From NCBI RefSeq assembly GCF_034259205.1, contig NZ_CP139487.1, positions 1,426,001 through 1,490,000 of the forward strand: a DNA stretch of 64,000 nt, read 5' to 3'. Below the pieces are notes generated by a model. It was not told the origin of the DNA, did no database searches, and was given only the letters and a program-made list of their open reading frames with translations. The DNA comes from Peredibacter starrii (GTDB taxonomy: Bacteria; Bdellovibrionota; Bacteriovoracia; Bacteriovoracales; Bacteriovoracaceae). The position numbers and the translations under genes are program-made. The number at the start of each line of letters is the position of its first letter. The first letter of the stretch is position 1. Shown in pieces: positions 2,805 to 24,562 of the stretch.

Positions 2805-5629
<2,825 letters not shown>

Positions 5630-9839: not shown

Positions 9840-10736
9840 ATGAAAGAATTAATATTTAACACCGTACTTATAGAAAGAATCCATTTAGCTTTTACTCGTT
9901 CGTGGCTTGGCTTTATTTTAGTATCTTCATTGCTTTTGTTTCTTATAATGTCATTATCTATGAACCTAGCTTTTTACTTCTGGAAAGTAGACTATATTCC
10001 TTATCACGAAAAAACCTTCGTAAATTTTTTTTCTGACCTAATTTCATTGCGAAATGATCTTCTGATTTTATCTATCACTTGTTTATATCTCATTTGGGGC
10101 TTCGTCAGATTATTTCTTGATCCGATTTTTAAAGTTTTCATGCTCCCTTTTGAAACCATATGGAGTTTTTTTGGAAATGTTCATGGAACTCATGGACATA
10201 GTGATCACGATCCATATGACTGGTTCGATGTGATTCAAATGAGAGTTTTTGAATGGAGAGGGAAAAGGTTTATCATCTCTACAGGTGAAGCTATGTGTGC
10301 TATTTCCCTCTTGTTTTGGAGCATTCTATACTTCATTATTCAATCATACTTCAGTTGGTGGTCCATCTTGCTTATCTTTGCTGCTTCTTCATTTTATTGG
10401 CTTGCAGTTAACAATCTGCGATACGTTTTTTATGATGACTTACCTGAGAGCAACGTTGAAAAGATTAATAAACGAAAAGATCATAAATTTGATAGAGGAC
10501 TTATATATTCACTGTCTACCATCGTGTTAGTTTTGCTTGCATTTATAATAAGTTTAAAAACGAGATCATCGTTTCACTCCTACTTCTCTTCTAAGACAAG
10601 AGTAGAAGTTTGCACTGTGGAGAAATGTTTTTATGGAAACTATCTGCAGACAACCAGTTATGGTCACTTGATTCTTAAAGATGGGCTGGCAGTAGCAATA
10701 TCAGGGGAAAACCTTAAGCATATTACGTTTTATTAA
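9840..10736 (+). CDS. Multi-pass membrane protein, family not recognised
   Basis: The 298-residue product has hydrophobic segments at roughly 22-46, 73-92, 150-167, 170-190 and 220-240. A polar loop with a His/Asp cluster (HGTHGHSDHDPYDWFD, about 116-131) lies between the second and third, which could bind metal. The last 50 residues form a soluble tail with two cysteines (EVCTVEKCF). It is the first gene of the AT-rich block that leads into the defence genes. No motif ties it to a known transporter or sensor. Confidence 0.6.
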   Translation: MKELIFNTVLIERIHLAFTRSWLGFILVSSLLLFLIMSLSMNLAFYFWKVDYIPYHEKTFVNFFSDLISLRNDLLILSITCLYLIWGFVRLFLDPIFKVFMLPFETIWSFFGNVHGTHGHSDHDPYDWFDVIQMRVFEWRGKRFIISTGEAMCAISLLFWSILYFIIQSYFSWWSILLIFAASSFYWLAVNNLRYVFYDDLPESNVEKINKRKDHKFDRGLIYSLSTIVLVLLAFIISLKTRSSFHSYFSSKTRVEVCTVEKCFYGNYLQTTSYGHLILKDGLAVAISGENLKHITFY

Positions 10737-10797
10737 ACTCATTGGTTCAGGGGCTGTAAAATTTATTTGATATCAGTATGGTTAGAAAGTAGGGAAA

Positions 10798-11313
10798 GTG
10801 GAGTCATTTAAAGAAGAAGTATTGAGCATATATTCTAACCTTCAGGTGTATTATGAAATTGCAAATGACGCATTTGAGGAGTCGGAATACCATCTAGCAA
10901 AAAACAGTTTGCCGAAACCCGATGGTGGATATATTAGGGCTTTTGACCCCCATCGATTGTCATTTAAAAACGGTTTAATTTCGACTTTATTTTGTGGTTC
11001 TTATATCGACCTTCATATTCGTTTGGCATACATCATGAAGAACGGCTCCGCACCTACCTGGAAGTGGGATAATGGCAAGGGAAGAACTAATAAGATAAAA
11101 CTGGAAGAATTAGGGGTTTTAGACGTTGACCTGTTGAATTTGATAGAAGGATTTGGGAGGGCACGCAATCAGATTGCTCATGAGAAGCCTATTGTCTTTG
11201 GAATATATTCTTCTGGCTCTATTAGTGGAACTGCACAAGAAAGTGCAAAGTTGGGTATCACTATAATCAATTGCTTAAGGAAAGCCTTACCACTTAGTAA
11301 TACTAACAATTAG
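10798..11313 (+). CDS. HEPN-like domain protein
   Basis: A 171-residue, mostly helical protein that starts with GTG. Near residue 118 it has RARNQIAHEK, which fits the RNxxxH active-site motif of HEPN ribonucleases. The central part (LISTLFCGSYIDLHIRLAYI) looks like the second helix of such four-helix bundles. HEPN proteins cut or bind RNA and are common in toxin-antitoxin and anti-phage systems. No obvious small antitoxin partner adjoins it; the next gene, 20 bases on, is a GNAT. The call rests on the motif and helical character. Confidence 0.5.
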   Translation: MESFKEEVLSIYSNLQVYYEIANDAFEESEYHLAKNSLPKPDGGYIRAFDPHRLSFKNGLISTLFCGSYIDLHIRLAYIMKNGSAPTWKWDNGKGRTNKIKLEELGVLDVDLLNLIEGFGRARNQIAHEKPIVFGIYSSGSISGTAQESAKLGITIINCLRKALPLSNTNN

Positions 11314-11333
11314 TGGTAGAAATAGCAGGTTAA

Positions 11334-12101
11334 ATGGACGAAATCAGAGTTTGCTCAAAAGAAGATTTAAAGCAAGTATTGGATTGGTTAAAGGCTGAAA
11401 ACGCAGCAGGTTTGCCGGGATGCTTTTATTGTAATCGTAGTCTCATTAAAGAATCGTTTAAGAAAAAAAATGTTTGGATTTTAGATTTGGGGAAGGGGCC
11501 GATTGCATTTTTAGTACTCAATCCACTCTGTTCATCAATCGAGATACTAGAAGTAAAACATGCTGAGCGTGGTCATGGTTATGGCAGAAAGATGGCAGAA
11601 TTCGCAATCTCTTACTTTAAGTCAAAGAATCACTCTATCATTCGAATCGATTGTCAGCCGAGTTCATCGATAAATTTTTGGAAGAAGATGGGGTTCCACT
11701 TATATAAAGAGACTTTTAAAGGAGTATCTAAAAAAAATCATTACTCAAATCGAGCCTATTTGAAAATCGGTAAAGATAATTATGTAGACCCTTCATGGCC
11801 AATGGTCTCAGTGGAAATTCGTTTCTACCCGGAGCAAGTTAAATGGAATGATAAGAGTGTTGAACCTATTGTTGTTTTTAAACCAGATTGCTTTCGAAAA
11901 AGTTCAAATGAATTAGTACTTAAAGATAGAATCGTATTTTATCACCCCTCCGTTTTTGAAGCCAGAGATGTTGTGATTTGCATATCAGTCGAAGATAACA
12001 AGTTATATATGGATAAAGCTAAGTATGAAGAAGGAAAAATTTTTGGTATCAATAAACAAGACAATGATTTGTTTTGGTTGGATAGAATTCTAATCCCTTA
12101 A
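11334..12101 (+). CDS. GNAT acetyltransferase with C-terminal extension
   Basis: Residues 1-155 form a GNAT domain. The acetyl-CoA pyrophosphate loop is ERGHGYGRKM, followed by the helix that ends in FYxxxGF-like FWKKMGFHL. The remaining 100 residues (PSWPMVSVEIRFYPEQ...) are a mostly beta region I do not recognise; simple GNATs are 140-170 residues long, so this one is clearly extended. It lies directly behind the HEPN gene. In toxin systems GNATs can acetylate aminoacyl-tRNA, but nothing here shows that activity. Its end overlaps the end of the convergent HEPN gene by a few bases. Confidence 0.7.
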   Translation: MDEIRVCSKEDLKQVLDWLKAENAAGLPGCFYCNRSLIKESFKKKNVWILDLGKGPIAFLVLNPLCSSIEILEVKHAERGHGYGRKMAEFAISYFKSKNHSIIRIDCQPSSSINFWKKMGFHLYKETFKGVSKKNHYSNRAYLKIGKDNYVDPSWPMVSVEIRFYPEQVKWNDKSVEPIVVFKPDCFRKSSNELVLKDRIVFYHPSVFEARDVVICISVEDNKLYMDKAKYEEGKIFGINKQDNDLFWLDRILIP

Positions 12102-12706
12102 CAAAGTTTTTGGGCGATCACACTCATGGCATCACTAAGCTCTTGGTATCGAGATGTTAAAGGTGTAATGGTATATGAACTTCTTAGATAGCCGATAGCA
12201 TTTCTTTCATGTGGTTTTAGTCTTGTTTGATTTAAAATTTTTTTTTCTAACTTTTCAATTGATGCTGGACTGGTATGAGCAATTGCGTTTCTTATTGTGG
12301 AGATTCTATTTAAAATTTCTTTATCTGCTTGAGTCAAAAGTCTAAATGGGAATTCTGATTTGAAATGGATTTGTGACATCTGAACTAAGTTCTCAAATGG
12401 CATCCATTTAATAAATGGTTGCTCACCCTTTACAATTTTAAATGCAAGATTTCTATTTTTGAAAGAGTAGAATGTCTTCACTGGAGCAGATGAACCTTTT
12501 AAGCTATTTGTCATATGTCCGAAATATAAATTTTCAAGAAAGACTTCAAAATGATTCGTCATTTTTATAAAGATACCAGCATACATGTACTCAAGATCAC
12601 TTTTAAAAATTTTTTTCTTCTGGTATTGGAGTTCAGCTCTTTGTCGTACACGTTCAAGAGCCTTAAGTTTATTTGTTAATTGAGTAGATAAGAGACTAGT
12701 ATTCAT
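12098..12706 (-). CDS. HEPN protein paired with DUF262 (MAE_28990-like)
   Basis: The 202-residue, helix-rich product carries STIRNAIAHTSP near residue 133, a clean RNxxxH HEPN motif, and an N-terminal coiled helix (LTNKLKALERVRQRAELQYQKKK). The pattern, with a middle segment VFLENLYFGHM, resembles the MAE_28990/MAE_18760 HEPN families. Its ATG follows the stop codon of the DUF262 gene without a gap (TAAATG), so the two proteins are very likely made together. By family knowledge such HEPN proteins are RNases held in check by, or fed by, the partner. Which is toxin and which is sensor cannot be read here. Confidence 0.65.
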   Translation of the reverse strand: MNTSLLSTQLTNKLKALERVRQRAELQYQKKKIFKSDLEYMYAGIFIKMTNHFEVFLENLYFGHMTNSLKGSSAPVKTFYSFKNRNLAFKIVKGEQPFIKWMPFENLVQMSQIHFKSEFPFRLLTQADKEILNRISTIRNAIAHTSPASIEKLEKKILNQTRLKPHERNAIGYLRSSYTITPLTSRYQELSDAMSVIAQKLC

Positions 12707-13774
12707 TTACTTCTTTAAGCTATTAAGATGATTAACTGCCTCCTGACGGAATTCAATCGTTTTAAGTCGTCTTTTCAATAATGACTCCTCTAGTTTCTTG
12801 GGAAGTTTTGCCGTCTCGAATTTTTGCAGAGATAATACAATTGAAGATATATCTTTAATGCTAAATTTTCTGGGCTTCTCTGGAGTGAGACTTGAGCTTA
12901 TTCCGTAAGTAAGATCATAAATCCATGTGAAGAGGGCATAAAAGTGTGATGAAGAAGAGAAGAAGACGCCTTGATATTTAGGGAATAATTCTTTATCTAA
13001 AAAATCCATGATGTGAGCAAATCTTTTTTCCACTTCTTTCCGGAATGTGAAGGTTTCATCATATTCCTGATAAAAAAGATCAAGCTTGTTTTGGTCCTTT
13101 GATTCAATGCCGTTTATAATGAAGTGATATAATTCACTAGTAAACTCTATGTCTGCCATTCGGGATAATTGCGGAGTTTTAAAAGTTCTCCAATGAACCC
13201 AATTCTCGTAGTGCGTATACGACATTTCGTATATAGAAGATTTAAGTTCTCCAAACCATTCTGCATTTCGTAATTCTTGGAAATTCAGTTTTGTTCCTGT
13301 TGAATTCATTCGAGAAAAAATTTCTAAGATTTCTCTGTCTCCCATGTCAGAAGGTAAAATATGAACACTAAACTTATAGTTTAAAATGAAGTTTCTCATG
13401 TCCTCTGGAAGTTCATTAAAAGCCTTGTTGGCAAGTTCCTTGTTGTGGTTCTTGGAAATTGTAACAGAGGATGACGAATCAATTTCATTTGGTATCAAAT
13501 GAGGAGCAATAAAAGAGATGATTGTAATTAATCGCTGTTGCCCATCAACGACATCCCGGATAGGTTCGAATTTGCCACTTACACGTCTCTCACGTATTAG
13601 TATAATTGGAATTGGTAAGCCTCTAGAAATTGTGTCTAGTAAAAAAGACTTAGCGCCTTTTTTCCATACACTCTTTCTTTGAAAGTCCGGGCGGAGATTT
13701 AAGGTTTCAGATTGTTGCCAACCAACAAAGTCTCCGACGGTGTAAACTGTTTTCGAAATTTCCCATTGTTTCAT
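12707..13774 (-). CDS. DUF262 domain protein (ParB-like/GmrSD-type nuclease fold)
   Basis: The 355-residue product has the DUF262 core in residues 12-130: LRPDFQRKSVW, then LPIPIILIRE, then VVDGQQRLITI with the conserved DGQQR motif. The C-terminal two thirds are helical. DUF262 is the N-terminal (GmrS-like) half of GmrSD-type restriction proteins and uses NTP for nuclease control; here the DUF1524 half is absent and a HEPN gene follows directly instead. The ATG at 13774 has a weak CAGGGC site. The pair stands divergent from the restriction-modification operon at 14212. Confidence 0.8.
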   Translation of the reverse strand: MKQWEISKTVYTVGDFVGWQQSETLNLRPDFQRKSVWKKGAKSFLLDTISRGLPIPIILIRERRVSGKFEPIRDVVDGQQRLITIISFIAPHLIPNEIDSSSSVTISKNHNKELANKAFNELPEDMRNFILNYKFSVHILPSDMGDREILEIFSRMNSTGTKLNFQELRNAEWFGELKSSIYEMSYTHYENWVHWRTFKTPQLSRMADIEFTSELYHFIINGIESKDQNKLDLFYQEYDETFTFRKEVEKRFAHIMDFLDKELFPKYQGVFFSSSSHFYALFTWIYDLTYGISSSLTPEKPRKFSIKDISSIVLSLQKFETAKLPKKLEESLLKRRLKTIEFRQEAVNHLNSLKK

Positions 13775-14211
13775 TAAAAGCCCTGAAATTGGATATAGTA
13801 AATGATGAACTTAGATGTTTCTTTTGAATTATTTTATCATAAATTTTGGAAATATCAAAAATAGGATCCCGCAATAATGGAAGAGATGCTTGAATCAATT
13901 TTTAAGAAGCATTCATCTTTTGAGTTCAAAGCATCTTTATTATGAGTAAGGGGAGTATTGATTTCGTTCGTCTAAAAGCAGTGCTTAGGCAAAAAATTCC
14001 AATTTATGAGTAAGTTTTCTTAAGGTGGAATTGATCAAATAGGCTTGGAGTAACCGAGAAATCGATATATACCTCTCTCAAATTATCTAATTGTTTGTAC
14101 TGTCTTAATATTTAGTTTGCCATTTCTAAGATTTCTTAAGTTTTTTTTGTTTCATAAAAACCCCAAAATCAAAGTTAATAATTAATTTTTTTTCTTTGAT
14201 GGGGGTTCAGG
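13775..14211. other. Divergent promoter region of two defence modules
   Basis: This 437-bp AT-rich gap separates the DUF262/HEPN pair from the methyltransferase operon. It must hold promoters for both directions. No protein frame with a ribosome binding site was found. The only clear structure is the inverted repeat at 14161-14205 next to the right-hand gene. Confidence 0.6.
14161..14205 (+). promoter_or_regulatory. Hairpin overlapping the ribosome binding region of the RM operon
   Basis: ATCAAAG at 14168-14174 pairs with CTTTGAT at 14194-14200, and CCCC at 14161-14164 pairs with GGGG after it, with three unpaired A between the two stems. The G-run lies 7-11 bases before the ATG at 14212. 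In RNA the fold would bury the likely ribosome binding site; in DNA the arms could serve as an operator. Confidence 0.4.
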
Positions 14212-14967
14212 ATGAACCAAGAGAATGTTTTTTTTCATCATCGTTCTAAGCAAAGGATAAAGGATCTCGGCGAGGTTTTTACTCCAGATGCTTTCGTTCA
14301 CCAGATGTTAGATCTATTAGTCTCAGGAGTCGAGGATTCAAAAATCTGGGCTGATGAAAACAAGATATTTTTTGAACCTACATGCGGTCATGGAAATTTT
14401 GTTACGGCTATTCTTGAAAGACGACTTAATGCAATTTCTACTTCGGCCAAAAAGAATAGAGATCCTCAGTATAGTCTGTATTCAATCGCAAATTCTATTA
14501 ATACCATTTGGGCAATTGATATTGATAAAAAGAATGTTGAAGAGTGTAGATATAGAGCATTATCTGTAATTATGAGTTTTTGGTCTCAATCAACTGGTAC
14601 TTCGTATAAGTTGCTCTTAAAACAGAACAGAAAATTCTTTATCCATCTATTGTGTGCTATCCAATGGCATATTCATGAAAACGAAGCACTCTCTGCTCTT
14701 TCAGATGAAGGTCAGTCGAAAAAATCAGCGAGTAAAACAGATCTGGGATCAAAATGGATAAATACTAACAAGCATCGTCCACTGGATTTTGAATTAACTT
14801 GGTGTGAATACTTTCAACAAGGCTTGAAGCATAAATATAAGGTTATTGAGTTTGAACGAGCCTCATCATTTGTCGACTCTCTCCTAACTGGACAAGAGAT
14901 TAAAGGATTTGAGGAATTTTCATTTGCCCTTGAAGTAATTTCTATCAGAGACGTCAGAGTCGCGTAG
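14212..14967 (+). CDS. N6-adenine methyltransferase-like subunit lacking the NPPY motif
   Basis: The 251-residue product keeps motif X (LGEVFTPDAFVHQMLDLL), motif I (FFEPTCGHGNF, the AdoMet loop) and motif II (WAIDIDKKNVEECRYRA) of gamma-class adenine methyltransferases. The NPPY/DPPY catalytic motif IV and a target-recognition domain are missing. It is therefore unlikely to methylate by itself. It is followed eight bases later by a complete methyltransferase gene, so it probably acts as a partner subunit, or it is a shortened relic. The frame is clean and ends normally. Confidence 0.7.
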   Translation: MNQENVFFHHRSKQRIKDLGEVFTPDAFVHQMLDLLVSGVEDSKIWADENKIFFEPTCGHGNFVTAILERRLNAISTSAKKNRDPQYSLYSIANSINTIWAIDIDKKNVEECRYRALSVIMSFWSQSTGTSYKLLLKQNRKFFIHLLCAIQWHIHENEALSALSDEGQSKKSASKTDLGSKWINTNKHRPLDFELTWCEYFQQGLKHKYKVIEFERASSFVDSLLTGQEIKGFEEFSFALEVISIRDVRVA

Positions 14968-14975
14968 GAGCGTTT

Positions 14976-16442
14976 ATGACTGCAGAGAAATTGAATTTAT
15001 CCAGAATAAATACTCATGTCGTAGACATTCTTGGAAATGTAAAGGGTAGAGATCAGCCAATTATGCTGATGAATAGAGCAATTGAACTAATTGCCCCACT
15101 GGGTGAAGAAGTACTTTCTTCTGACGAATATGTATTTTTTGATCCCTTCTGTAAAGCTGGCGAAATCCTACTCGCATGCGCTTTCCTAAAGAGCTATTAC
15201 AAGATTCATAAGAGCAAACCTTTACCTACAGTAGAAGAAATTCAAAAGTCGATGTTCGAGGATAATAATTTTTATGCTTTGGCACCGGATGAAAGACATT
15301 ATCGTCTTAGTCTTAGAACATTTCTGGGGAATGAAAAGTCTCATGACGAAGATTATATAAAGATGATCCGATGTGGTGATTATCTTTCAGAGCTCGATGG
15401 AACATTAACAGAAGAAAAATTTACAGAGAGGTTCAATCAAATGATTGAGTATATCAAGAAGAATTCGCCAAATAAAAAAATTATTGCAGTGGGGAACCCT
15501 CCTTATCAGGAGTCTGATGGAGGATTTGGGAAAAGCGCTAAGGCTGTTTATAATTTTTTTACTGAAGCTTTGTTAGATAGTCCTGATATTAATAAGTTCA
15601 TCCTCGTAATTCCATCGAGATGGTTTGGGGGAGGAAAGGGCCTTGACGAATTTCGCGAAAAAATCCTGGCGTTAAAATCTGTGAAAGAAATTAAATATTT
15701 TGATAATTCCTCAAAAGTATTTCCTACGGTCGATATCAATGGAGGTGTTTGCTTCTTGCATGTAGATAAAGACTATGCTGGAACAACTTATCTTTCAGAT
15801 GATAAACATCGTGAAATTATTGATATGTCAGAGTTCGATATCATTCCAGACGATCCCAAGTCTTTCTCAATTATTCGAAAAGTTCGAAACAAGTGGAAGG
15901 ATAAATATGTTGGTAATAAGGCTTGGCCAAGTAAACCTTTTGGTTTAAGAACTAATTATTTCGATGTTAATCCGGATCTTGGGAAATCACATTCAAAAGG
16001 AGTCGCTTGCTTAAGTAAAGGAAAGCAAATTAAATATGCTTCACGATCTCACATTACAAAAAATAAAAATCATATAGATTCTTGGAAGGTTTGTGCACCC
16101 AAGGCTGCAGGTGGATCTAAAGGGAGTCGTCGTTCTACTATTCCTCTAAATCAGATATTTTTAATTGGGAAAGGGATGGTAACAACAGAAACATACAATG
16201 TTATTGATGTTTTTAAAACTAAGTCAGAAGCTGAGAATTTTATAGCCTACTTAAAAACTGATTTCGCTCGATATCTAGTAGGTTTGCGAAAAATAACACA
16301 AGATTTACCTCCTGATAGATGGAATTGGGTTCCATACGTAGATTTAAAGAAAGCCTGGAATGATGAAGAGTTGTGTAAACTATTTGCAATTACTAAGGAA
16401 GAACGAAAACATATGTCCGCCAAAGTTGAGGAGTGGTCATAA
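14976..16442 (+). CDS. N6-adenine DNA methyltransferase, Eco57I-like
   Basis: The 488-residue protein has motif X (VKGRDQPIMLMNRAIELI), a motif I variant (FFDPFCKAGEILLA) and the catalytic motif IV NPPYQESDGGFGKSAKAVYNFF. The insertion behind NPPY is typical of Eco57I/type IIG methylases. From about residue 230 it continues into a target-recognition-like region ending in GLRKITQDLPPDRWNWVPYVD, as in TaqI/Eco57I families. It should methylate adenine in a specific DNA site and protect the host. A good AGGAGCG site precedes the ATG. Its TAA shares a base with the ATG of the nuclease-helicase gene. Confidence 0.85.
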   Translation: MTAEKLNLSRINTHVVDILGNVKGRDQPIMLMNRAIELIAPLGEEVLSSDEYVFFDPFCKAGEILLACAFLKSYYKIHKSKPLPTVEEIQKSMFEDNNFYALAPDERHYRLSLRTFLGNEKSHDEDYIKMIRCGDYLSELDGTLTEEKFTERFNQMIEYIKKNSPNKKIIAVGNPPYQESDGGFGKSAKAVYNFFTEALLDSPDINKFILVIPSRWFGGGKGLDEFREKILALKSVKEIKYFDNSSKVFPTVDINGGVCFLHVDKDYAGTTYLSDDKHREIIDMSEFDIIPDDPKSFSIIRKVRNKWKDKYVGNKAWPSKPFGLRTNYFDVNPDLGKSHSKGVACLSKGKQIKYASRSHITKNKNHIDSWKVCAPKAAGGSKGSRRSTIPLNQIFLIGKGMVTTETYNVIDVFKTKSEAENFIAYLKTDFARYLVGLRKITQDLPPDRWNWVPYVDLKKAWNDEELCKLFAITKEERKHMSAKVEEWS

Positions 16443-18907
16443 TGAAATCTGAAGCTCTTGAACTTTATGTATACACTACCAAATCTCATGAAGTGAGTGG
16501 TCTCATCAAAGTAGGTCATTCATTACGTGGAAGACATAAAGAAAGAATCAAAGAGCAGTTTGGAACGAGTAATCCAGAACAACCTATTATCAAATGGGTA
16601 CAAGAACTTCCAGGAGGATTTCGTGATATTGATATCCATTCTCAGTTAATAAAGAATGGGATTTCGAGAGTTGAGGGTGGTCCCGGGAAAGAGTGGTTTA
16701 TTGCCACTCTGGACGACGTTAAGCGTGCTTATAATCAATTAGTTAATGGCAGTAAAAGACTGGAGAATTTTAAGCCTCGGCAAGAGCAATTGGAAGCAGT
16801 AGAAAAAGCAAAAAAATGGTTTGTTAAGGATTATCCCAAAGAAGTGCTCGAATCTGCGACGCACCAAGATCGTTTTTTGTTAAATGCAAAAATGCGTTTT
16901 GGTAAATGCTTCACAGGTATACATATTGCGAAAGCGATAAAGGCCCGAAAAACTATAGTAGTTACATATAAGCCAGAAGTCATTTCTGAATGGATGGAGT
17001 CAGCTAATAATCATGTCGATTTCGAAGGATGGATGGGAATCAGAGCTAAGAAAAAGAATGGGGTCTTCAATGAACCATGCTTATCTGTTGACGGAGATTT
17101 TCCCGATACGTCTGGCCCTATAGTCCTATGTGTCTCCTTACAAGATCTAAGTATCGACCAGGATGGGGAAACGAAAAGACGACTTGAAAAGGTGATAAAA
17201 TCCAAATGGGATCTGATCATTTTTGATGAAGTACACTTTGGAAGTCGTACTGAGCGGGCAAAGTACATTATTGATAAGATAACAGATCTTAATATAACAT
17301 ATCGTCTTGATCTTTCTGGAACCCCTTTTAGACTGATTCAGCAAGATGATTTTTGTTCTCAACAAGTTTTCACTTATAGTTATCTTGATGAGAAAAAAAA
17401 TAAAGATTTTGAGATCTTCGGAGATCTGCATGGCACAAAGGAAAAGATATATCGGCAAATGCCAAATCTGGACATCTCCACAATTGAAATTACAGAAGAT
17501 GATATATGTGAGCAGACAGAATCCTTTATAACTGATGATTTAGACTTTTCTCTTAATGAACTCTTTAAAGCAAAGAAAAACGGTTTTGAGCATGAAGATG
17601 CTGTTGACCATTTTTTGGATGGTTTAGTAAAGAGGGATCATGATGCTAAAGCTATTAGCGTCTATGGTAAACTCGGCGAACAGTTAGGTCTGCCACCGAT
17701 TCGCCATTCTGTTTGGTGGTTAAATAGAGTAGACTCTGTTGCAGCACTAGCTTCGAAATTACGGAAACATCCATATTTCTCTCGGTTTGAAATTATAAAC
17801 GCTTCAGGAAGTGAAACAGGCAATGAGGATGATGAAACCTTGGTCGCCAAAGATAAAGCTACAATTGAAGAAAAGATAAGAGCTGTTAATAATGATCCAA
17901 AAAAGCTTGGCACAATAACTTTAACGGTCAGAAGATTTCTGACCGGCGTAACAATAAAAGAATGGGAATCGATTCTTGTCTTAAATGATGTAAAATCTGC
18001 AGAGTCGTACTATCAAGCCATTTTTCGTGTTCAATCTGCCTGGGTTGATCGTGATACTAAAAAGGTTTTGAAACCACAGGCATGGGTTTTTGATTTTGCC
18101 ATATCTAGATGTTTACGAATTACTTATGAATACGCAGATGCTCTGGCAGATCAGCTAGACCAGCAAGATAGTTTTGCTGAAAGATACACTGTCAATAAAG
18201 ACAATCTAGTTCAGACGATGACAGGTTTATGTGAAAGTCTTAATATCAAGCGTTTTTATGAAGGTAGGCTATCTTCGGATCAAACAACAGCTAGAGATAT
18301 TTTTGATGCTTTGAACTTAGAGGGTTCAAGGATTTCTTTGGCAAAAAGAATTACAAGTGACGCTTTAGTTAACTTCACTTCGTTGAAATTATTAGAAGAA
18401 AATCCAAGACTTTTTGAGGTTTTAAAAAAGGTAAAGGGATATAGAACTCAAGAAGTTGGTTCTATTGAGGACTTCGTTCAAATCGGACTTGATGCTGACA
18501 AGTTAAAAGAAAAGAAAAGAAAAAATGATATTACGGAAGAAGAAATTGAAGAGAATAATAAAGATTTTGTAGAAGATGAAAAAGATAAAGAGAAACAAAC
18601 TAGGAAAAAATGGTTCGCAACTCAGATTAAACGATTAGCTATTTGTATGGCAGACTTCGTTTATATGACTCAGTTTAGAGAACACAACATTGATCATGTT
18701 ATACAAACTAAAGACTCGGAGTTCTTCGGGGTTGTCACTGGAATTTCGAAAGAAGACTTTTCGGAGCTATGTGAGTTTGAGTTTATAAACAAATCATCCC
18801 TTAATAGAATTGTACGTGAATTTAGATGCCAAGAAGAGAGTTCTTTAAAGCCTGAAGAATACATTCTAGAACAGTTAAGAGCGATACATGTAAAAGAGTC
18901 AGCTTAA
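16442..18907 (+). CDS. GIY-YIG nuclease fused to an SF2 helicase (restriction subunit)
   Basis: In this 821-residue product, residues 8-95 match the T5orf172/GIY-YIG fold: LYVYTT, then GLIKVGHSLRGRHKERI, then an H65 segment and GKEWF with E86. Residues 110-600 are a superfamily-2 helicase: FKPRQEQLEAV, Walker A variant MRFGKCFTG (150-158), DEVH (262-265), SGTPF (292-296) and SAESYYQAIFRVQSAW as motif VI. The rest is charged and helical. The ATG at 16442 overlaps the methylase stop (TAATG), and GAGGAG precedes it; an in-frame GTG at 16433 is less likely. It is the probable ATP-driven cutting subunit of the restriction-modification system formed with the two upstream genes. Confidence 0.85.
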   Translation: MKSEALELYVYTTKSHEVSGLIKVGHSLRGRHKERIKEQFGTSNPEQPIIKWVQELPGGFRDIDIHSQLIKNGISRVEGGPGKEWFIATLDDVKRAYNQLVNGSKRLENFKPRQEQLEAVEKAKKWFVKDYPKEVLESATHQDRFLLNAKMRFGKCFTGIHIAKAIKARKTIVVTYKPEVISEWMESANNHVDFEGWMGIRAKKKNGVFNEPCLSVDGDFPDTSGPIVLCVSLQDLSIDQDGETKRRLEKVIKSKWDLIIFDEVHFGSRTERAKYIIDKITDLNITYRLDLSGTPFRLIQQDDFCSQQVFTYSYLDEKKNKDFEIFGDLHGTKEKIYRQMPNLDISTIEITEDDICEQTESFITDDLDFSLNELFKAKKNGFEHEDAVDHFLDGLVKRDHDAKAISVYGKLGEQLGLPPIRHSVWWLNRVDSVAALASKLRKHPYFSRFEIINASGSETGNEDDETLVAKDKATIEEKIRAVNNDPKKLGTITLTVRRFLTGVTIKEWESILVLNDVKSAESYYQAIFRVQSAWVDRDTKKVLKPQAWVFDFAISRCLRITYEYADALADQLDQQDSFAERYTVNKDNLVQTMTGLCESLNIKRFYEGRLSSDQTTARDIFDALNLEGSRISLAKRITSDALVNFTSLKLLEENPRLFEVLKKVKGYRTQEVGSIEDFVQIGLDADKLKEKKRKNDITEEEIEENNKDFVEDEKDKEKQTRKKWFATQIKRLAICMADFVYMTQFREHNIDHVIQTKDSEFFGVVTGISKEDFSELCEFEFINKSSLNRIVREFRCQEESSLKPEEYILEQLRAIHVKESA

Positions 18908-19276
18908 GTTGTATTTTAGATGTCTATACTTTTCCATCATCTTCATAATCCAAGCTGCCTCTATATCTTTGGGAGTCGGTTTTTCTTTGGTTTTTAACTC
19001 TTTAACTATTGGAGGTTCATAATAAGGTCTTTCTTTGGGCTTGAAGGTCTTTATTCTTAATTCCCAAACGATCCTACATATGATCGAACCTCTCAAATTA
19101 TTGCATCGGCGATGAGACAAAGTTAGGTTACGAGCTGATGAATTTCCTCCCTCTGAGAGAGGGACAATATGTTCTATCGAACTATCATCGAAATATTCAA
19201 TCTTGTTTCGACATACGAAGCATATGCGATCGGATTTTCTCCATAGCTGGAAACGCTTTTTTCTTATATCACCCAT
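18899..19276 (-). CDS. HNH endonuclease
   Basis: The 125-residue product has a textbook HNH core: CFVCRNKIEYF with two Cys, then SIEHIVPLSEGGNSSARNLTLSHRRCNNLRG with the general-base His, the middle Asn and the zinc-binding Cys/His set. The C-terminal 50 residues are basic and helical. Such small enzymes nick or cut DNA. It points against the restriction operon and overlaps the end of the nuclease-helicase gene by nine bases. The ATG at 19276 (AGGTGG site) starts two bases after the end of a small lipoprotein gene. Confidence 0.85.
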   Translation of the reverse strand: MGDIRKKRFQLWRKSDRICFVCRNKIEYFDDSSIEHIVPLSEGGNSSARNLTLSHRRCNNLRGSIICRIVWELRIKTFKPKERPYYEPPIVKELKTKEKPTPKDIEAAWIMKMMEKYRHLKYNLS

Positions 19277-19277
19277 A

Positions 19278-19466
19278 TCACCACCTACAGCTGACTCCGC
19301 CATGCTCGCAGACTATGCAATCATGGCCGGCAATGAATCTGAGGCTGCACTGGTTCTGAACAACCTCATCTTCTAGACCTAGGGCTTTCCCACATGATGT
19401 GAAGACTATGGTCATGATGACTATTAGGAAAACTGCTGCAAAGCTTTGGATAAAAAATGTTCTCAA
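19278..19466 (-). CDS. Small Cys-rich lipoprotein upstream of HNH gene
   Basis: This 62-residue frame starts with TTG behind a GAGAGG site. It has a hydrophobic signal (FAAVFLIVIMTIVFTSC) ending in a plausible lipobox Cys, then a short mature part with four more cysteines in its last 25 residues (QC, DC, CEHGGVSC). The spacing suggests disulfides or metal binding. It stands just in front of the HNH gene and its upstream region contains one of the WYL-type inverted repeats. It may be an ordinary small lipoprotein caught between two defence genes. Confidence 0.5.
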   Translation of the reverse strand: MRTFFIQSFAAVFLIVIMTIVFTSCGKALGLEDEVVQNQCSLRFIAGHDCIVCEHGGVSCRW

Positions 19467-19503
19467 GTTGTACCTCTCTGAGGTTCAAAGGTATTAGAGT
19501 CGA

Positions 19504-19520
19504 GTCTCAATATTCGGGAC
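19504..19520. promoter_or_regulatory. Operator-like inverted repeat 1 (WYL/BrxR type)
   Basis: GTCTCAATATTCGGGAC is an imperfect inverted repeat (GTCYC, seven bases, GRGAC). A near copy lies 86 bases further on. It stands between the divergent small-lipoprotein/HNH genes and the WYL regulator gene, so a bound regulator could act on both. Confidence 0.55.
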
Positions 19521-19531
19521 TTTCTATAAAA

Positions 19532-19543
19532 TAAGAATTCTTA
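19532..19543. promoter_or_regulatory. TAAGAATTCTTA palindrome
   Basis: A perfect 12-bp palindrome lying between the two larger inverted repeats in front of the WYL gene. In so AT-rich a region it may be chance, but its place inside a divergent promoter region makes it a candidate binding site. Confidence 0.3.
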
Positions 19544-19589
19544 AGAATGCATATTTTCAAAGACTTAAGTCTCAAGGCAACTGACCATT

Positions 19590-19606
19590 GTCTCAATTTT
19601 TGGGAC
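19590..19606. promoter_or_regulatory. Operator-like inverted repeat 2 (WYL/BrxR type)
   Basis: GTCTCAATTTTTGGGAC matches the repeat at 19504-19520 in 15 of 17 bases, keeping both arms. It ends 21 bases before the ATG of the WYL gene, where a bound repressor would block transcription or translation start. Confidence 0.55.
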
Positions 19607-19627
19607 TTCGATACCGATAATTAACCA

Positions 19628-20593
19628 ATGAGTAAAACTACGAACTATTTAAATATCTTGTACAAGATTTCCTTGTCTCCGACGCGATATTTATCAGAGT
19701 CCAGTATCAAAGAAATGATGGGCAATCCTCCAAAGTCAACATGGCATAGACAGATCAATGAACTGTTAGAAGGATCGAAAGATGTGCCACCTTTGCTTAT
19801 TGAAACTTTGAATCCTAGTGGTGAAAGACTATTTTGTTTAAACACCAAAGGCTGGCAAGCTTTTCTTGACGCTCAAGAAGAGGGCAAGTTTCTTCTTGAA
19901 TGTTATCGCCAGGTGGGACATCTCTTAGATAGTCATTTTACTGATATGGTTTTTGACTTGGCCGATACGGATCGTAGACACTTTGACCGCCTAGGAAGAA
20001 AGTTTATGCATCTAGTGACGGTTAAAGCCTCTCATTCATTAAATACTCGAAAAACATTAGATTCTGTCATTGAAGCATTAATCGGAGAAAAACAAATAGA
20101 GCTTACTTATGATGGTGGTCTAAGGAAAGTTATGCCTCTAACGTTATGCCAGTATAGAGATGAACTTTATCTTATGTGTTATCGGATCAAAGACGACTCA
20201 CTATGGGAAAAGAGAACATATAAGCTTTCCCGTATTAATGGAATTAGAGTCCTTGATAAAAAATTTCCCTATCCGTCAAAATCTGAATGGGATCCCATTA
20301 AAGAATATAAAAATTCATCCGGTCTGGTACTTGGTGAAATTAAAAGAGTTATGTTGAAGGTTTATGGACCTAGCAGAAAGATATTTTCTGAAAAAGAGTT
20401 CTTTAACGGAGAGTTTGTGAATAGAGGAGAAGACTTCGATGCTTATCTTTGCTCTTATACAAATTCAGCAGAGCTCCTGGGCCAAATCTTTGTTTATGCC
20501 CAGGATATCGAAATTGTAGATAACGAAGAATTGAGAAATGAATTTGTAATCAAGGCCCAACAAGGTCTTTTAAGAAATAAACTGGCAGCATAA
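19628..20593 (+). CDS. WYL-domain transcriptional regulator (BrxR/CapW-like)
   Basis: The 321-residue protein has an N-terminal winged helix (residues about 10-65, SESSIKEMMGNPPKSTWHRQINELL). A WYL domain follows in the middle (KQIELTYDGGLRKVMPLTLCQYRDELYLMCYR), then a C-terminal WCX-like segment (KRVMLKVYGPSRKIFSEKEFF). This is the layout of BrxR and CapW, which repress defence operons until a nucleic-acid or nucleotide ligand is bound. Two matching inverted repeats stand just upstream. McrB begins 11 bases behind its stop, so it is the first gene of the mcrBC operon. No clear ribosome binding site was seen. Confidence 0.85.
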   Translation: MSKTTNYLNILYKISLSPTRYLSESSIKEMMGNPPKSTWHRQINELLEGSKDVPPLLIETLNPSGERLFCLNTKGWQAFLDAQEEGKFLLECYRQVGHLLDSHFTDMVFDLADTDRRHFDRLGRKFMHLVTVKASHSLNTRKTLDSVIEALIGEKQIELTYDGGLRKVMPLTLCQYRDELYLMCYRIKDDSLWEKRTYKLSRINGIRVLDKKFPYPSKSEWDPIKEYKNSSGLVLGEIKRVMLKVYGPSRKIFSEKEFFNGEFVNRGEDFDAYLCSYTNSAELLGQIFVYAQDIEIVDNEELRNEFVIKAQQGLLRNKLAA

Positions 20594-20604
20594 AGGTATT
20601 GAAC

Positions 20605-23295
20605 ATGGCCATCGCAAGTGATGTGAAGCAATTATTTAATTATCTACAAAAGAACAACTTACTGACAGACCAGATAGTTAAGGATCTTCAAAATGCAGAT
20701 TACTGCTCCAAGGAACTGTCTGCGGGAAAGTATCCCGTACTTCTGAAATTGGATGATACTAGATCTCATCAAGAACAACGAAAATTTGGAACTCCACAAG
20801 CGAGATATTACGACCCCGAAACTTACAGTTTGACCTTCAAAGATCAAAAGTATCTATTTAGTAGTCAGCTTTTTGAAGAGCAAAGGAAGAGATATTATAG
20901 TTGGTTAAACAGAAGCTTCGGATTGAATCCAGTTAGAATCATTTCTGGTCCCAAAACAGAACTGATTACTAACATAAGAACTTTGATTGCCAAAGGATTC
21001 AAGAGTGAAATTCTGAAAGAGAACGATTATTACTATATTAAAAATAAGAACGTTTTTGAGTCGTTTAAATCACTAAAAGTTGCAAAAGCCGTTTTGGAGA
21101 CTGCATACCAAGGTTTCTTAGATTCGAAGTCAACGTTTCAAAATTATCTCTCAAGCCTACCTAAGAAATCACGTGAATATGAGCTATTTGAGATTATAGG
21201 TAAAGTTGTGGCTCATTTCGATCTCCATGGTTTCAATAAAAGCGTATGGAATCTCAATGAAGATAAGCGAACTCTGGCTAGAATCGGTGTCCGTCAGAAT
21301 GATTGGGTGAGGTATTTAATTAATTATAAGATTTCACAGAACGATGCTTTTTTAATGAAGCCCGGTAGTGTGAAGAATACTATTCGTTACATTGAATCTC
21401 CTAATTTAAACTTCACCATACTTTCAGATAACCAACGTGAGGCTTTTTCAAAACTGATATTAGGAATTGAATTTGATCCGGATACCTTCTCTAGTGAGCT
21501 TACAGAGCTGCTCAGAGATGTAGAAATACCTGTAAATAATCCACTAAATCGAAATGTGTACATCAGCCATTGTCTTTATCATGAATCTATTCTTGAACTC
21601 TGGGAAGAAGTCGAGCCTAAGGGATATTGGGTTTTGGGGGCATGGTGGGGTGGAGATACAGAAGAAAAAGATCAATCTAGACGATTTATTGAGCAATCAA
21701 TATGGGAGAACGGTTTTGAGGAAAGTTCTGGAGATCCCTCTCTTAAAGTTGTGCAGAAGATTAAAGAGGGGGATTTTGTGGCCCTCAAGAGTTCATATCC
21801 CTCTAAAGACGCTAATGGCAACAAGATCTCTTGTTTGATGATCAAGGCAATTGGAGAAGTCGTTTCGAATGATGGTGATGGAATCAACCTTGCTGTTACT
21901 TGGGAGAAACAAGAGCATAAAGTGTTCGGCTTATCCTATATGAAGACTGCGGAAGCAGTTAAGGAAAAGGACATTGAAGCCATATTCAGATTGAATAATT
22001 CTGTTAAAGGCGAAGAAATGAGTCAAAGATGTATTGATAAACCTAGGAATGTAATCTTTTTTGGTCCGCCGGGTACCGGCAAAACTCATAAGCTGATGAA
22101 TGAGATTGCACACGAATTTATTGGTGAGAGCCTTTCAATAGAGTCTAAGATGGCTGAAGTTTTTGAAGATTTTCCACTTTGGAAGGTTATAGCCTGTACT
22201 TTGATCGATGCAGGAAAGCCATTATCAGTTAAAGAGATAATGGAACATGAATTTGTTATCATTAAGTCAAAGTTGGTTGGTACCAAGACTTTTAAGGAAA
22301 GCATTTGGGGCAAGTTACAGTCAAAGACTATTCTGGAATCAAAGACAGTAAATACAAAAAATAGATCTGCTCCATATGTTTTTGATAAGAATGAAAATTC
22401 CGAATGGAAGCTGGCCGGGGATTGGAAAGAAGAACTTTCAGATGAAATAAAGCTTGTTCAAGAAATGAGACAAGGGGAAAAATTAACAGGGTCCTTTAAA
22501 AGATTTGAATTTGTTACTTTTCATCCGAGCTTTAGTTATGAAGATTTTATGGAAGGTATCAAGCCCATTCTGGATGAGGAGTCTGATAATGGACTTCAAT
22601 ATACCTTGGTTAATGGAATTTTCAAGAGGATGTGCCTTAGGGCTGCCGAAGATCCTAAGAATAACTACGCCATATTTATCGACGAGATTAATCGAGGAAA
22701 TATTCCTTCAATTTTTGGTGAATTGATCACGCTAATTGAGGAAGACAAGAGAGGTCGAGTCAGCACAGTGCTTCCATACTCTAAAATCGAATTCACTGTT
22801 CCAAAGAATCTCTTCATATACGGGACTATGAATACGGCTGATAAAAGTGTCGAGGCTTTGGATTTAGCCCTGAGACGAAGATTTATTTTCGAGGAATTGG
22901 AGCCGAGATTAGAGGCGATTGATTGTGAGTTTGAACCTGAACTCATTAAAAACTTGTTTAAAACCCTAAATACTAGGGTTGAAGCGCTACTAGGCAAAGA
23001 CTTTAGAATTGGTCACAGTTACTTCATGAAGGAGCAGATCAAAGACATTAATGGACTTCGAATTGTTTTTGAAAACAAGATTATTCCTCTTCTGAAAGAG
23101 TACTTTTACGAAGACTGGGAGAAACTATCAATGGTCCTTGGTAGAAAGTTCGTCGCGAAGGTTAATTCTGGAAAGATAAAATTTGCTAAAGGGTATTCAG
23201 ACGTTCCTGAAGAGTATCAAGAAAAGTCAATCTACAGAATCAGTGACTCAAAAGATTGGGACTTGTCTACCTTCAAAAGTATATATGAAGATTAA
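20605..23295 (+). CDS. mcrB: McrB-type AAA+ GTPase of modification-dependent restriction
   Basis: The 896-residue product has the McrB AAA+ core: Walker A FGPPGTGKT at about 487-494, Walker B FIDEINRGNI, then GTMNTADKSVEALDLALRRRF. An insertion after Walker A looks like a small winged-helix domain (LWKVIACTLIDAGKPLSVKEIM). The first 470 residues contain an EVE/PUA-like segment (GYWVLGAWWGGD...IKEGDFVALKSS), a fold used to read modified bases. McrB hydrolyses GTP and moves DNA for the McrC nuclease. The ATG at 20605 is preferred over the TTG at 20599 because AAAGGT is eight bases before it. Its end overlaps mcrC by 11 bases. Confidence 0.9.
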   Translation: MAIASDVKQLFNYLQKNNLLTDQIVKDLQNADYCSKELSAGKYPVLLKLDDTRSHQEQRKFGTPQARYYDPETYSLTFKDQKYLFSSQLFEEQRKRYYSWLNRSFGLNPVRIISGPKTELITNIRTLIAKGFKSEILKENDYYYIKNKNVFESFKSLKVAKAVLETAYQGFLDSKSTFQNYLSSLPKKSREYELFEIIGKVVAHFDLHGFNKSVWNLNEDKRTLARIGVRQNDWVRYLINYKISQNDAFLMKPGSVKNTIRYIESPNLNFTILSDNQREAFSKLILGIEFDPDTFSSELTELLRDVEIPVNNPLNRNVYISHCLYHESILELWEEVEPKGYWVLGAWWGGDTEEKDQSRRFIEQSIWENGFEESSGDPSLKVVQKIKEGDFVALKSSYPSKDANGNKISCLMIKAIGEVVSNDGDGINLAVTWEKQEHKVFGLSYMKTAEAVKEKDIEAIFRLNNSVKGEEMSQRCIDKPRNVIFFGPPGTGKTHKLMNEIAHEFIGESLSIESKMAEVFEDFPLWKVIACTLIDAGKPLSVKEIMEHEFVIIKSKLVGTKTFKESIWGKLQSKTILESKTVNTKNRSAPYVFDKNENSEWKLAGDWKEELSDEIKLVQEMRQGEKLTGSFKRFEFVTFHPSFSYEDFMEGIKPILDEESDNGLQYTLVNGIFKRMCLRAAEDPKNNYAIFIDEINRGNIPSIFGELITLIEEDKRGRVSTVLPYSKIEFTVPKNLFIYGTMNTADKSVEALDLALRRRFIFEELEPRLEAIDCEFEPELIKNLFKTLNTRVEALLGKDFRIGHSYFMKEQIKDINGLRIVFENKIIPLLKEYFYEDWEKLSMVLGRKFVAKVNSGKIKFAKGYSDVPEEYQEKSIYRISDSKDWDLSTFKSIYED

Positions 23296-24562
23296 ACGCC
23301 TAACTGTTTTTGAACACAATTCATTGAGAGTAGGCGAAGATGAAAATAATCTTTCAAAGAAAGAGTTTGAGGCATTATGTCTTTATCATTCTAAATCATC
23401 TCAGAAGTTCTTTTCTATTGAATATAATAAAATTCGTTTCAAACATTTTGTCGGCGCAATTCAAGTCGGATCGCTTATGATCGAAGTATTGCCGAAAGTT
23501 GATCATGATAATGATAATTTTGATCGATGGCATCACGCGCTTATTAACATCTTACAACACACAAAGCGAATTAGATCTTATTCGGCCAATAACTCAAACT
23601 TAGAAGTTCATAATGGATCTTTAATTGATCTATATATTGAACATTTTTTAAATGAGGTAGATCGTTTATTACACTCAGGGCTTAGGAAAAAGTACAGGGT
23701 TGAAACTTCCAACTTAAATGTACTTAAAGGAAGAATCGATTTTGGTAAACATCTCAAAAATAATCTCGCAGACATGACTAAGTTTAACTGTGCTCACGAA
23801 GTATTTAACTGGGATCATGACATTCATTCTGCGATTAGGATGGCTCTTAATATTGTAATAAAGACTGTGAAAAACCAACATCTAGTCGCGAGAGCCAAAA
23901 AACTTAACCTTTACATGCCTGAAAATGTTAAACAATCTATTTCCATCGATCGATTAGACAGAATTAAGCTAGATAGGACAACAAAAAGGTATGAAGTAGC
24001 TTTAACTCTATCCTCACTTCTAATACGATCTTTTTGCCCCATGATGACAGCTGGTAAGTCTTCAGTTCTGGCTATTATGTTTGACATGAATCATCTTTAC
24101 GAAGATTTTATTTTTAACATGATTAGACGCTGTCTGGCCGATACTGAATATACTGTCGAAAGAAGAATGAAGAAGTTTTGGAAAGATAAAGTGATTAAAC
24201 CTGATATGTTGATCACAAATGGTCGAAAGGTTATTATCATGGATACTAAATGGAAAATTCCTCAAGATGGTACTCCCACTGATGCAGACCTAAAGCAGGT
24301 TTTTGTTTATAACAACTATTTCGATTCTCCTGATTCAGTCTTGCTTTATCCTTGGTCTTCAATATTTGAAGGGGTTCAAAAAGAATCCTTACATGGTGAA
24401 TATTATCAACCTCTCACCCTAGATGGTCTCTGTATTCCTAATAGCTGCAGAGTTGAAACAATTAGTTTCTTTGATTCGAATGACAAATTTGACACGGGGA
24501 AAATCTTAGATGAAATAAAACAAATCATCTTTACTATCATTGAAAGTCATAAAGTGGCTTAA
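23285..24562 (+). CDS. mcrC: McrC-type restriction nuclease subunit
   Basis: The 425-residue protein ends in a PD-(D/E)xK nuclease core: IKPDMLITNGRKVIIMDTKWK, with the catalytic Asp, Asp and Lys. The N-terminal part (VGAIQVGSLMIEVLPKVD) is the McrB-binding region typical of the 5-methylcytosine restriction system subunit C. It starts inside the end of mcrB, so the two are translationally coupled. McrC gives the complex its DNA-cutting activity against modified DNA. The reading frame is open upstream, but the ATG at 23285 begins at the family start (MKIKRLTVFEH). Confidence 0.9.
   Translation: MKIKRLTVFEHNSLRVGEDENNLSKKEFEALCLYHSKSSQKFFSIEYNKIRFKHFVGAIQVGSLMIEVLPKVDHDNDNFDRWHHALINILQHTKRIRSYSANNSNLEVHNGSLIDLYIEHFLNEVDRLLHSGLRKKYRVETSNLNVLKGRIDFGKHLKNNLADMTKFNCAHEVFNWDHDIHSAIRMALNIVIKTVKNQHLVARAKKLNLYMPENVKQSISIDRLDRIKLDRTTKRYEVALTLSSLLIRSFCPMMTAGKSSVLAIMFDMNHLYEDFIFNMIRRCLADTEYTVERRMKKFWKDKVIKPDMLITNGRKVIIMDTKWKIPQDGTPTDADLKQVFVYNNYFDSPDSVLLYPWSSIFEGVQKESLHGEYYQPLTLDGLCIPNSCRVETISFFDSNDKFDTGKILDEIKQIIFTIIESHKVA

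What the first reader, a model, noticed from the sequence alone, without database searches (positions are those of the whole stretch)
14212..18907. Restriction-modification operon with a catalytic and a non-catalytic methylase subunit and a GIY-YIG helicase
The first methylase keeps AdoMet motifs but lacks NPPY; the second has NPPY and a recognition region; the third gene joins a GIY-YIG nuclease with an SF2 helicase. This does not match the classic type I (HsdRMS), III (Mod/Res) or IIG layouts. A heterodimeric methylase with a translocating GIY-YIG nuclease may be a separate class.
Basis: partly seen in the sequence, partly recalled or inferred. Interest (0 to 1): 0.65.

Follow-up and report, generated by a model that had tools for sequence, protein, structure and literature searches.

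The report
Split-methylase restriction operon, DrdVI-like
This is a three-gene bacterial anti-phage restriction system in which one protein holds the methyl donor, a second holds the catalytic motif and picks the DNA site, and a third is a DNA-pumping nuclease; it is a real but already catalogued kind of system (DrdVI), here in a distant branch found in Bdellovibrio relatives and Legionella.

Summary
M1 (251 aa) has MTase motifs X, I, II and no NPPY. M2 (488 aa) has an Eco57I/M.TaqI-type MTase fold, NPPY and a TRD. The third protein (824 aa) is a GIY-YIG nuclease fused to an SF2 helicase. The same operon lies on pDrdVI of Deinococcus wulumuqiensis 479, reported as M1-2.DrdVI (GCAGCC, m6A, 'type IIG') with a fused GIY-YIG translocase/REase. 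MaeIV is a second published 'split methylase' relative. So the layout is already described and widespread (at least 535 genome hits), not a new class.

New detail from 117 M1s and 118 M2s: M1 keeps every AdoMet motif residue (Gly-x-Gly 117/117, motif II Asp/Glu 117/117) and never has NPPY (0/117). M2 always has NPPY (118/118), but its motif I has Lys for the first Gly (118/118) and its motif II acid is always lost. The AdoMet half and the catalytic/TRD half therefore sit on different proteins. Gene 1 is not a local remnant: 113 of 120 testable loci have it. Activity, target motif and cleavage of the window's system are untested.

The parts
14212..14967 (+). M1: AdoMet-binding half of a gamma-class N6-adenine MTase (motifs X-III), no NPPY
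   Evidence: (117 homologues: G59, G61 and E55-P56 117/117; motif II D/E103 117/117; NPPY-like 0/117); AF2 model residues 8-195 align to CamA 16-159, the N-terminal MTase half
14269..14286 (+). M1 motif X, GEVFTP (residues 20-25)
   Evidence: T24 116/116 occupied
14368..14400 (+). M1 motif I, FFEPTCGHGNF (residues 53-63)
14509..14535 (+). M1 motif II, WAIDIDKKN (residues 100-108), acid D103
14976..16442 (+). M2: MTase fold with NPPY plus C-terminal target-recognition domain (Pfam Eco57I)
   Evidence: AF2 pTM 0.85; best solved match M.TaqI 2np6, Z 18.5, rmsd 4.1 over 342 residues, model 27-461
15135..15170 (+). M2 degenerate motif I, FFDPFCKAGEIL (residues 54-65); K60 replaces the first Gly
   Evidence: K60 118/118 and G62 118/118; motif II acid position A103 is A/G/S in 118/118
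15495..15506 (+). M2 motif IV, NPPY (residues 174-177)
   Evidence: 118/118
15873..16439 (+). M2 C-terminal target-recognition region (about residue 300 to the end)
   Evidence: structural alignment extends over the C-terminal regions of M.TaqI, CamA and MmeI; boundary approximate
16433..18907 (+). GIY-YIG nuclease fused to SF2 helicase/translocase (DrdVI-type REase); overlaps M2 by 10 nt
16460..16738 (+). T5orf172 GIY-YIG domain (about residues 10-102); Y12, K26, G28, R38, E87
   Evidence: 147/148 Y12, K26, G28; R38 146/148; E87 147/148
16883..16909 (+). Walker A-like NAKMRFGKC (residues 151-159)
   Evidence: G157 and K158 148/148; residue 159 is T in most homologues, C in the window's clade
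17225..17236 (+). Walker B / motif II, DEVH (residues 265-268)
   Evidence: D and E 148/148
18014..18034 (+). helicase motif VI-like, QAIFRVQ (residues 528-534)
   Evidence: Q528, F531, R532 and Q534 148/148

Best explanation
A DrdVI-type restriction-modification system. M1 and M2 together make one N6-adenine methyltransferase for one asymmetric site set by the M2 TRD. M1 supplies the AdoMet-binding half (motifs X-III); M2 supplies NPPY and target recognition, its own AdoMet half being degenerate. The third protein docks on the MTase/TRD complex at unmodified sites, moves along DNA with its SF2 motor at the cost of ATP, and cuts with its GIY-YIG domain. Host sites are protected by m6A. Shown here: gene content, order, co-inheritance, intact signature residues, complementary motif loss, predicted folds, and homology to DrdVI. 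Shown by others: M1-M2 pairs of DrdVI and MaeIV methylate DNA in E. coli. Inferred: that M1 AdoMet is used with M2 NPPY, that translocation precedes cleavage, and that this copy is active.
For: Operon identity: all three window proteins match the pDrdVI genes L013 2175-2813, 2822-4441 and 4410-6989 (M1 38% over 117 aa, E 7e-18; M2 32% over 329 aa, 3e-45; helicase 29% over 861 aa, 3e-91). pDrdVI is reported as M1-2.DrdVI GCAGCC m6A IIG, DrdVI as fused translocase and GIY-YIG REase, and MaeIV as a split methylase. Conservation: 113 of 120 testable loci have M1; the commonest order is M1|M2|helicase (109 of 153 loci); pairwise distances of the three proteins correlate (Spearman 0.78-0.86). Complementary motifs. 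In the variants M1|NPPY|HEL-K and M1|HEL-K|NPPY the NPPY chain begins at the NPPY strand (MSKEFKFDVVIGNPPYQ), the M2-like AdoMet half is on the helicase chain and further decayed (DLYMKSG or DLFSTAG), and M1 is still present. M1 model = N-terminal MTase half; M2 model = whole M.TaqI-like enzyme. Nuclease and helicase motifs nearly invariant.
Against: The AF2 model of M2 alone pairs its degenerate half with the NPPY half into one complete MTase fold, so M2 might still bind AdoMet itself and M1 be only an activator; M.TaqI itself is active without the first Gly of motif I (own knowledge). No complex was modelled, and a coevolution test had too few sequences. The window clade has GKC instead of GKT in Walker A and has lost M2 motif X and the zinc-finger cysteines, so its activity may be altered. 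Published evidence that DrdVI cuts DNA was not found in the library.
Confidence: 0.82

Rival explanations
1. M2 is a complete, self-sufficient methyltransferase (Lys in motif I tolerated), and M1 is a non-catalytic activator or pseudo-methylase partner, as METTL14 is to METTL3. The operon would still be a DrdVI-type RM system.
For: M2 alone is predicted as a complete M.TaqI-like fold with the degenerate half and NPPY together; motif X Thr kept in 109 of 118 M2s.
Against: Motif II acid absent in 118/118 M2s and Lys for Gly in 118/118, while M1 keeps all AdoMet residues. In split variants the M2-like half lies on another chain and decays further. M1 is present almost always; in one otherwise intact locus without M1 (L135) a separate MTase fusion lies upstream.
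Confidence: 0.2
2. A type IV-like or abortive nuclease: the GIY-YIG helicase attacks modified or foreign DNA, and the methylase pair is an unrelated passenger.
For: McrBC and DUF262 genes are neighbours in the same island; one locus (L010) keeps the helicase alone.
Against: Co-inheritance of all three proteins, overlapping genes, and fusions of the helicase with M2 in Enterococcus and Lactococcus.
Confidence: 0.05
3. A decayed, inactive island relic.
For: Walker A GKC and loss of M2 motif X and zinc cysteines in the window's clade; a related locus L022 has frameshifts.
Against: All three ORFs are intact here and in L154, L155, L156, L021 and L007 at 41-63% identity, with nuclease and helicase catalytic residues otherwise kept.
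Confidence: 0.08

Closest known systems
DrdVI (Deinococcus wulumuqiensis 479, pDrdVI; M1.DrdVI, M2.DrdVI, DrdVI)
   Same: Same three genes, order, domain make-up and signature residues; M1-M2 cloned together and shown to make m6A at GCAGCC
   Different: Only about 27/26/32% identical overall; window clade lacks M2 motif X Thr and the zinc cysteines and has GKC in Walker A; target site probably different
MaeIV (Methanococcus aeolicus)
   Same: Described as a split methylase/RM similar to DrdVI; m6A at GCACY
   Different: Archaeal; sequence not compared here
Type ISP enzymes (LlaGI, LlaBIII)
   Same: SF2 translocase, gamma-class MTase and TRD acting as one restriction complex; M2 model matches 5ffj and 4xqk
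   Different: Single polypeptide with a different nuclease (Mrr type) and one MTase domain (established knowledge)
OspHL35III-like systems (Blow et al. 2016)
   Same: MTase/TRD, translocase and GIY-YIG nuclease combined
   Different: Translocase and GIY-YIG nuclease on separate proteins, whole MmeI-like MTase (PMC4752239)
CglI
   Same: ATP-dependent nuclease with a helicase-like subunit and an asymmetric site
   Different: Separate endonuclease and helicase subunits (PMC5737866); no GIY-YIG helicase fusion

Membership tests
DrdVI-type split-methylase RM | Three genes in the order M1, M2, REase/translocase | tested here: met
DrdVI-type split-methylase RM | M1 homologous to M1.DrdVI, no NPPY | tested here: met
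   38% over 117 aa, E 7e-18; 0/117 NPPY
DrdVI-type split-methylase RM | M2 homologous to M2.DrdVI, with NPPY and TRD | tested here: met
DrdVI-type split-methylase RM | GIY-YIG nuclease fused to an SF2 translocase | tested here: met
DrdVI-type split-methylase RM | m6A at an asymmetric site made by M1+M2 | not testable with these tools
   needs long-read data or cloning; shown for DrdVI and MaeIV (PMC6430315, PMC10113651)
Type I (HsdRMS) | Separate HsdS subunit with two TRDs, HsdM with NPPF/NPPY, HsdR nuclease | tested here: not met
   no HsdS-type protein in the operon; TRD is inside M2
Type III (Mod/Res) | Mod of the beta class (DPPY) plus Res with a PD-(D/E)XK nuclease | tested here: not met
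   M2 is Eco57I/M.TaqI-like with NPPY; nuclease domain is GIY-YIG
Classic Type IIG (single-chain RM) | Endonuclease, MTase and TRD in one polypeptide | tested here: not met
   three chains; the DrdVI authors nevertheless file it under IIG
Type ISP | Single chain of nuclease, SF2 motor, MTase and TRD | tested here: not met
   three chains, GIY-YIG nuclease

The most novel reading that the evidence does not exclude
M1 and the degenerate N-terminal half of M2 are related and compete for the same NPPY/TRD half: with M1 in place the complex methylates; with the Lys-bearing pseudo-half in place, which in some lineages is physically part of the helicase chain, AdoMet is excluded and the complex becomes the restriction form that launches the translocase. 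The switch between modification and restriction would be a swap of half-domains.
Probability: 0.12. Interest if true: 0.65.

Novelty: new member of a known kind. Interest (0 to 1): 0.33.

Why it matters
The system shows how widespread the DrdVI-type 'split methylase' is (at least 535 hits in one genome collection, many phyla, plasmids and prophages). The family-wide motif pattern makes a precise, cheap prediction: the methyl donor sits on M1 and the catalytic motif on M2, with an invariant Lys marking the degenerate site. PADLOC matches these proteins only piecemeal, as type II and IIG, and no NCBIfam model reaches its cut-off on them, so annotation would gain from a family of their own.

Tried and rejected
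(1) A class of its own: rejected once pDrdVI and its papers were found. (2) Gene 1 as a remnant: rejected (113 of 120 loci). (3) Tethered M1-M2 structure prediction: the one in-frame abutting pair (L061, stop between) was considered, but MAFFT placed all 76 M1 rows on the M2 pseudo-half, so M1 and M2 were folded apart. (4) Direct-coupling analysis on 105 M1-M2 pairs (effective number 75): the signal exceeds random re-pairing, but that control ignores phylogeny and the top pairs do not pick a partner half, so inconclusive (one search failed on memory). (5) Natural M1-M2 fusions: none among 153 loci; 12 matches in the phylum all have M1 frames of 201-287 aa. PMC4996451 reports a fragmentary gene with M1-like and M2-like ends in Bibersteinia; its sequence was not in reach. 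(6) Solved-structure sequence search: no meaningful match for M2 (best E 0.67) and none for g3. (7) E. coli genomes: no near match.

Full report
Observation. M2 starts 8 nt after M1, and g3 overlaps M2 by 10 nt, as in a translationally coupled operon. They sit in a low-GC stretch (0.34-0.37 against 0.40-0.46 outside) with other defence genes, in a complete 4.15 Mb genome. The closest named chromosomal relative is from Bdellovibrionaceae (L022). No other genome of the same genus listed in the searches carries g3 or M1, so the operon was probably acquired horizontally.

What it is. Pfam gives Eco57I for M2, and T5orf172 (GIY-YIG) plus ResIII for g3; M1 has no Pfam match, but PADLOC finds its N-terminal half in several type II MTases. 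tblastn on plasmids found the same operon in Legionella adelaidensis and, at about 30% identity in g3, in Mycolicibacterium, Mycobacteroides, Acuticoccus, Sphingopyxis, Rhizobium, Variovorax and Deinococcus wulumuqiensis NEB 479 plasmid pDrdVI; the phage collection gave a gut phage, NatCom_35866. In Enterococcus and Lactococcus plasmids g3 and M2 are one chain, with M1 still separate.

Known name. PMC6430315 lists pDrdVI as M1-2.DrdVI, GCAGCC, 6mA, IIG, cloned in ER2796. PMC4996451 describes DrdVI as a fused translocase and REase with a GIY-YIG domain and names M1.DrdVI and M2.DrdVI. PMC10113651 calls MaeIV (GCACY) a split methylase similar to DrdVI and shows that M1-M2.MaeIV methylates in E. 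coli. All three window proteins match the three pDrdVI genes in order. The finding is therefore a member of a described kind.

Breadth. Among 153 loci the order M1|M2|g3 is by far the commonest (109). Of 120 loci with room upstream, 113 have M1; the seven others are mostly remnants, contig ends or divergent forms. In one of them (L135) a gene whose sequence reads as an adenine-cytosine MTase fusion (my reading, not run through a family library) stands upstream of an intact M2 and g3, as if another methylase had taken over protection. Distances between M1, M2 and g3 correlate strongly (Spearman 0.80, 0.86, 0.78).

The split. Family-wide counts show complementary loss. M1: motif X Thr 116/116 occupied, motif I E-P and Gly-x-Gly 117/117, motif II Asp/Glu 117/117, NPPY-like 0/117. 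M2: NPPY 118/118, motif I Lys in place of the first Gly 118/118, motif II acid 0/118. In the variants where g3 carries the M2-like N-terminal half, that half has decayed further (DLYMKSG, DLFSTAG) and the NPPY chain starts at the NPPY strand itself, while M1 is still encoded. AlphaFold2 gives M1 as an N-terminal MTase half: its model residues 8-195 align to CamA 16-159, with only two strands of the sheet. M2 is given as a whole M.TaqI-like enzyme (Z 18.5, rmsd 4.1 to 2np6 over 342 residues). My reading is that M1 provides AdoMet and M2 provides NPPY and the TRD. How M1 reaches the NPPY half while M2 has a pseudo-half of its own is not settled: either M1 displaces that half, or both sit in a larger assembly. 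A coevolution test lacked power.

The nuclease-motor. Over 148 g3 sequences the GIY-YIG residues (Y12, K26, G28, R38, E87) and helicase motifs (GK157-158, DE265-266, SGT295-297, Q..FR.Q528-534) are invariant or nearly so. The window's clade has Cys for Thr after the Walker Lys and has lost motif X Thr and the zinc cysteines of M2, so it is a distinct branch of the family. Six relatives of this branch (L154/L003, L155/L004, L156/L002, L021, L007, L022) carry M1 too, at 42-49% identity.

How it works. By analogy with ATP-dependent RM enzymes of types ISP and III (established knowledge), an unmodified target bound by the M2 TRD would recruit or activate g3, which translocates and cuts with GIY-YIG; methylated targets are ignored. 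This step is inferred; no cleavage data for DrdVI were found in the library.

Verdict. Observation confirmed; interpretation partly right; not a new class. The invariant Lys and the complementary motif loss were not found described in the papers searched, but the library holds only part of the literature and REBASE itself could not be queried.

Noticed in passing
window 9840-24562: Low-GC defence island around the operon: HEPN-like (12098-12706, -), DUF262/GmrSD_N protein (12707-13774, -; PADLOC NsnA 6e-36, PD-T4-2_A 4e-26), HNH protein (18899-19303, -), WYL regulator (19628-20593), McrB-like (20599-23295) and McrC (23183-24562); no tRNA in the window and no integrase among the flanking genes scanned.
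   Followed up: partly
L022 11705-16083, L155 4601-7398, L028 3151-6593, L114 8913-12403, L127 8926-11793: McrB homologues, most with McrC beside them, lie next to the DrdVI-type operon in several unrelated genomes, as in the window.
   Followed up: no
window 16907-16909: Walker A of the translocase reads GKC instead of GKT in the whole window clade (window, L002, L003, L004, L007, L021), an unusual change at the Mg-binding residue.
   Followed up: partly
L135 1163-5960: Locus with M2 and g3 but no M1; upstream is a 727 aa protein that reads as an adenine MTase fused to a cytosine-C5 MTase, plus a 334 aa protein, possibly a natural replacement of M1.
   Followed up: partly
L010 5884-8520: Corynebacterium crudilactis plasmid keeps only the GIY-YIG helicase, beside IS1133 and aph genes; M1 and M2 are gone.
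   Followed up: no
L017 2419-9288: Bifidobacterium longum: an IS256 element between M1 and the M2-like chain; that chain has no NPPY.
   Followed up: no
window 2805-4901 (-): tRNA-guanine transglycosylase fused to a Methyltransf_30 domain in one 698 aa ORF.
   Followed up: no
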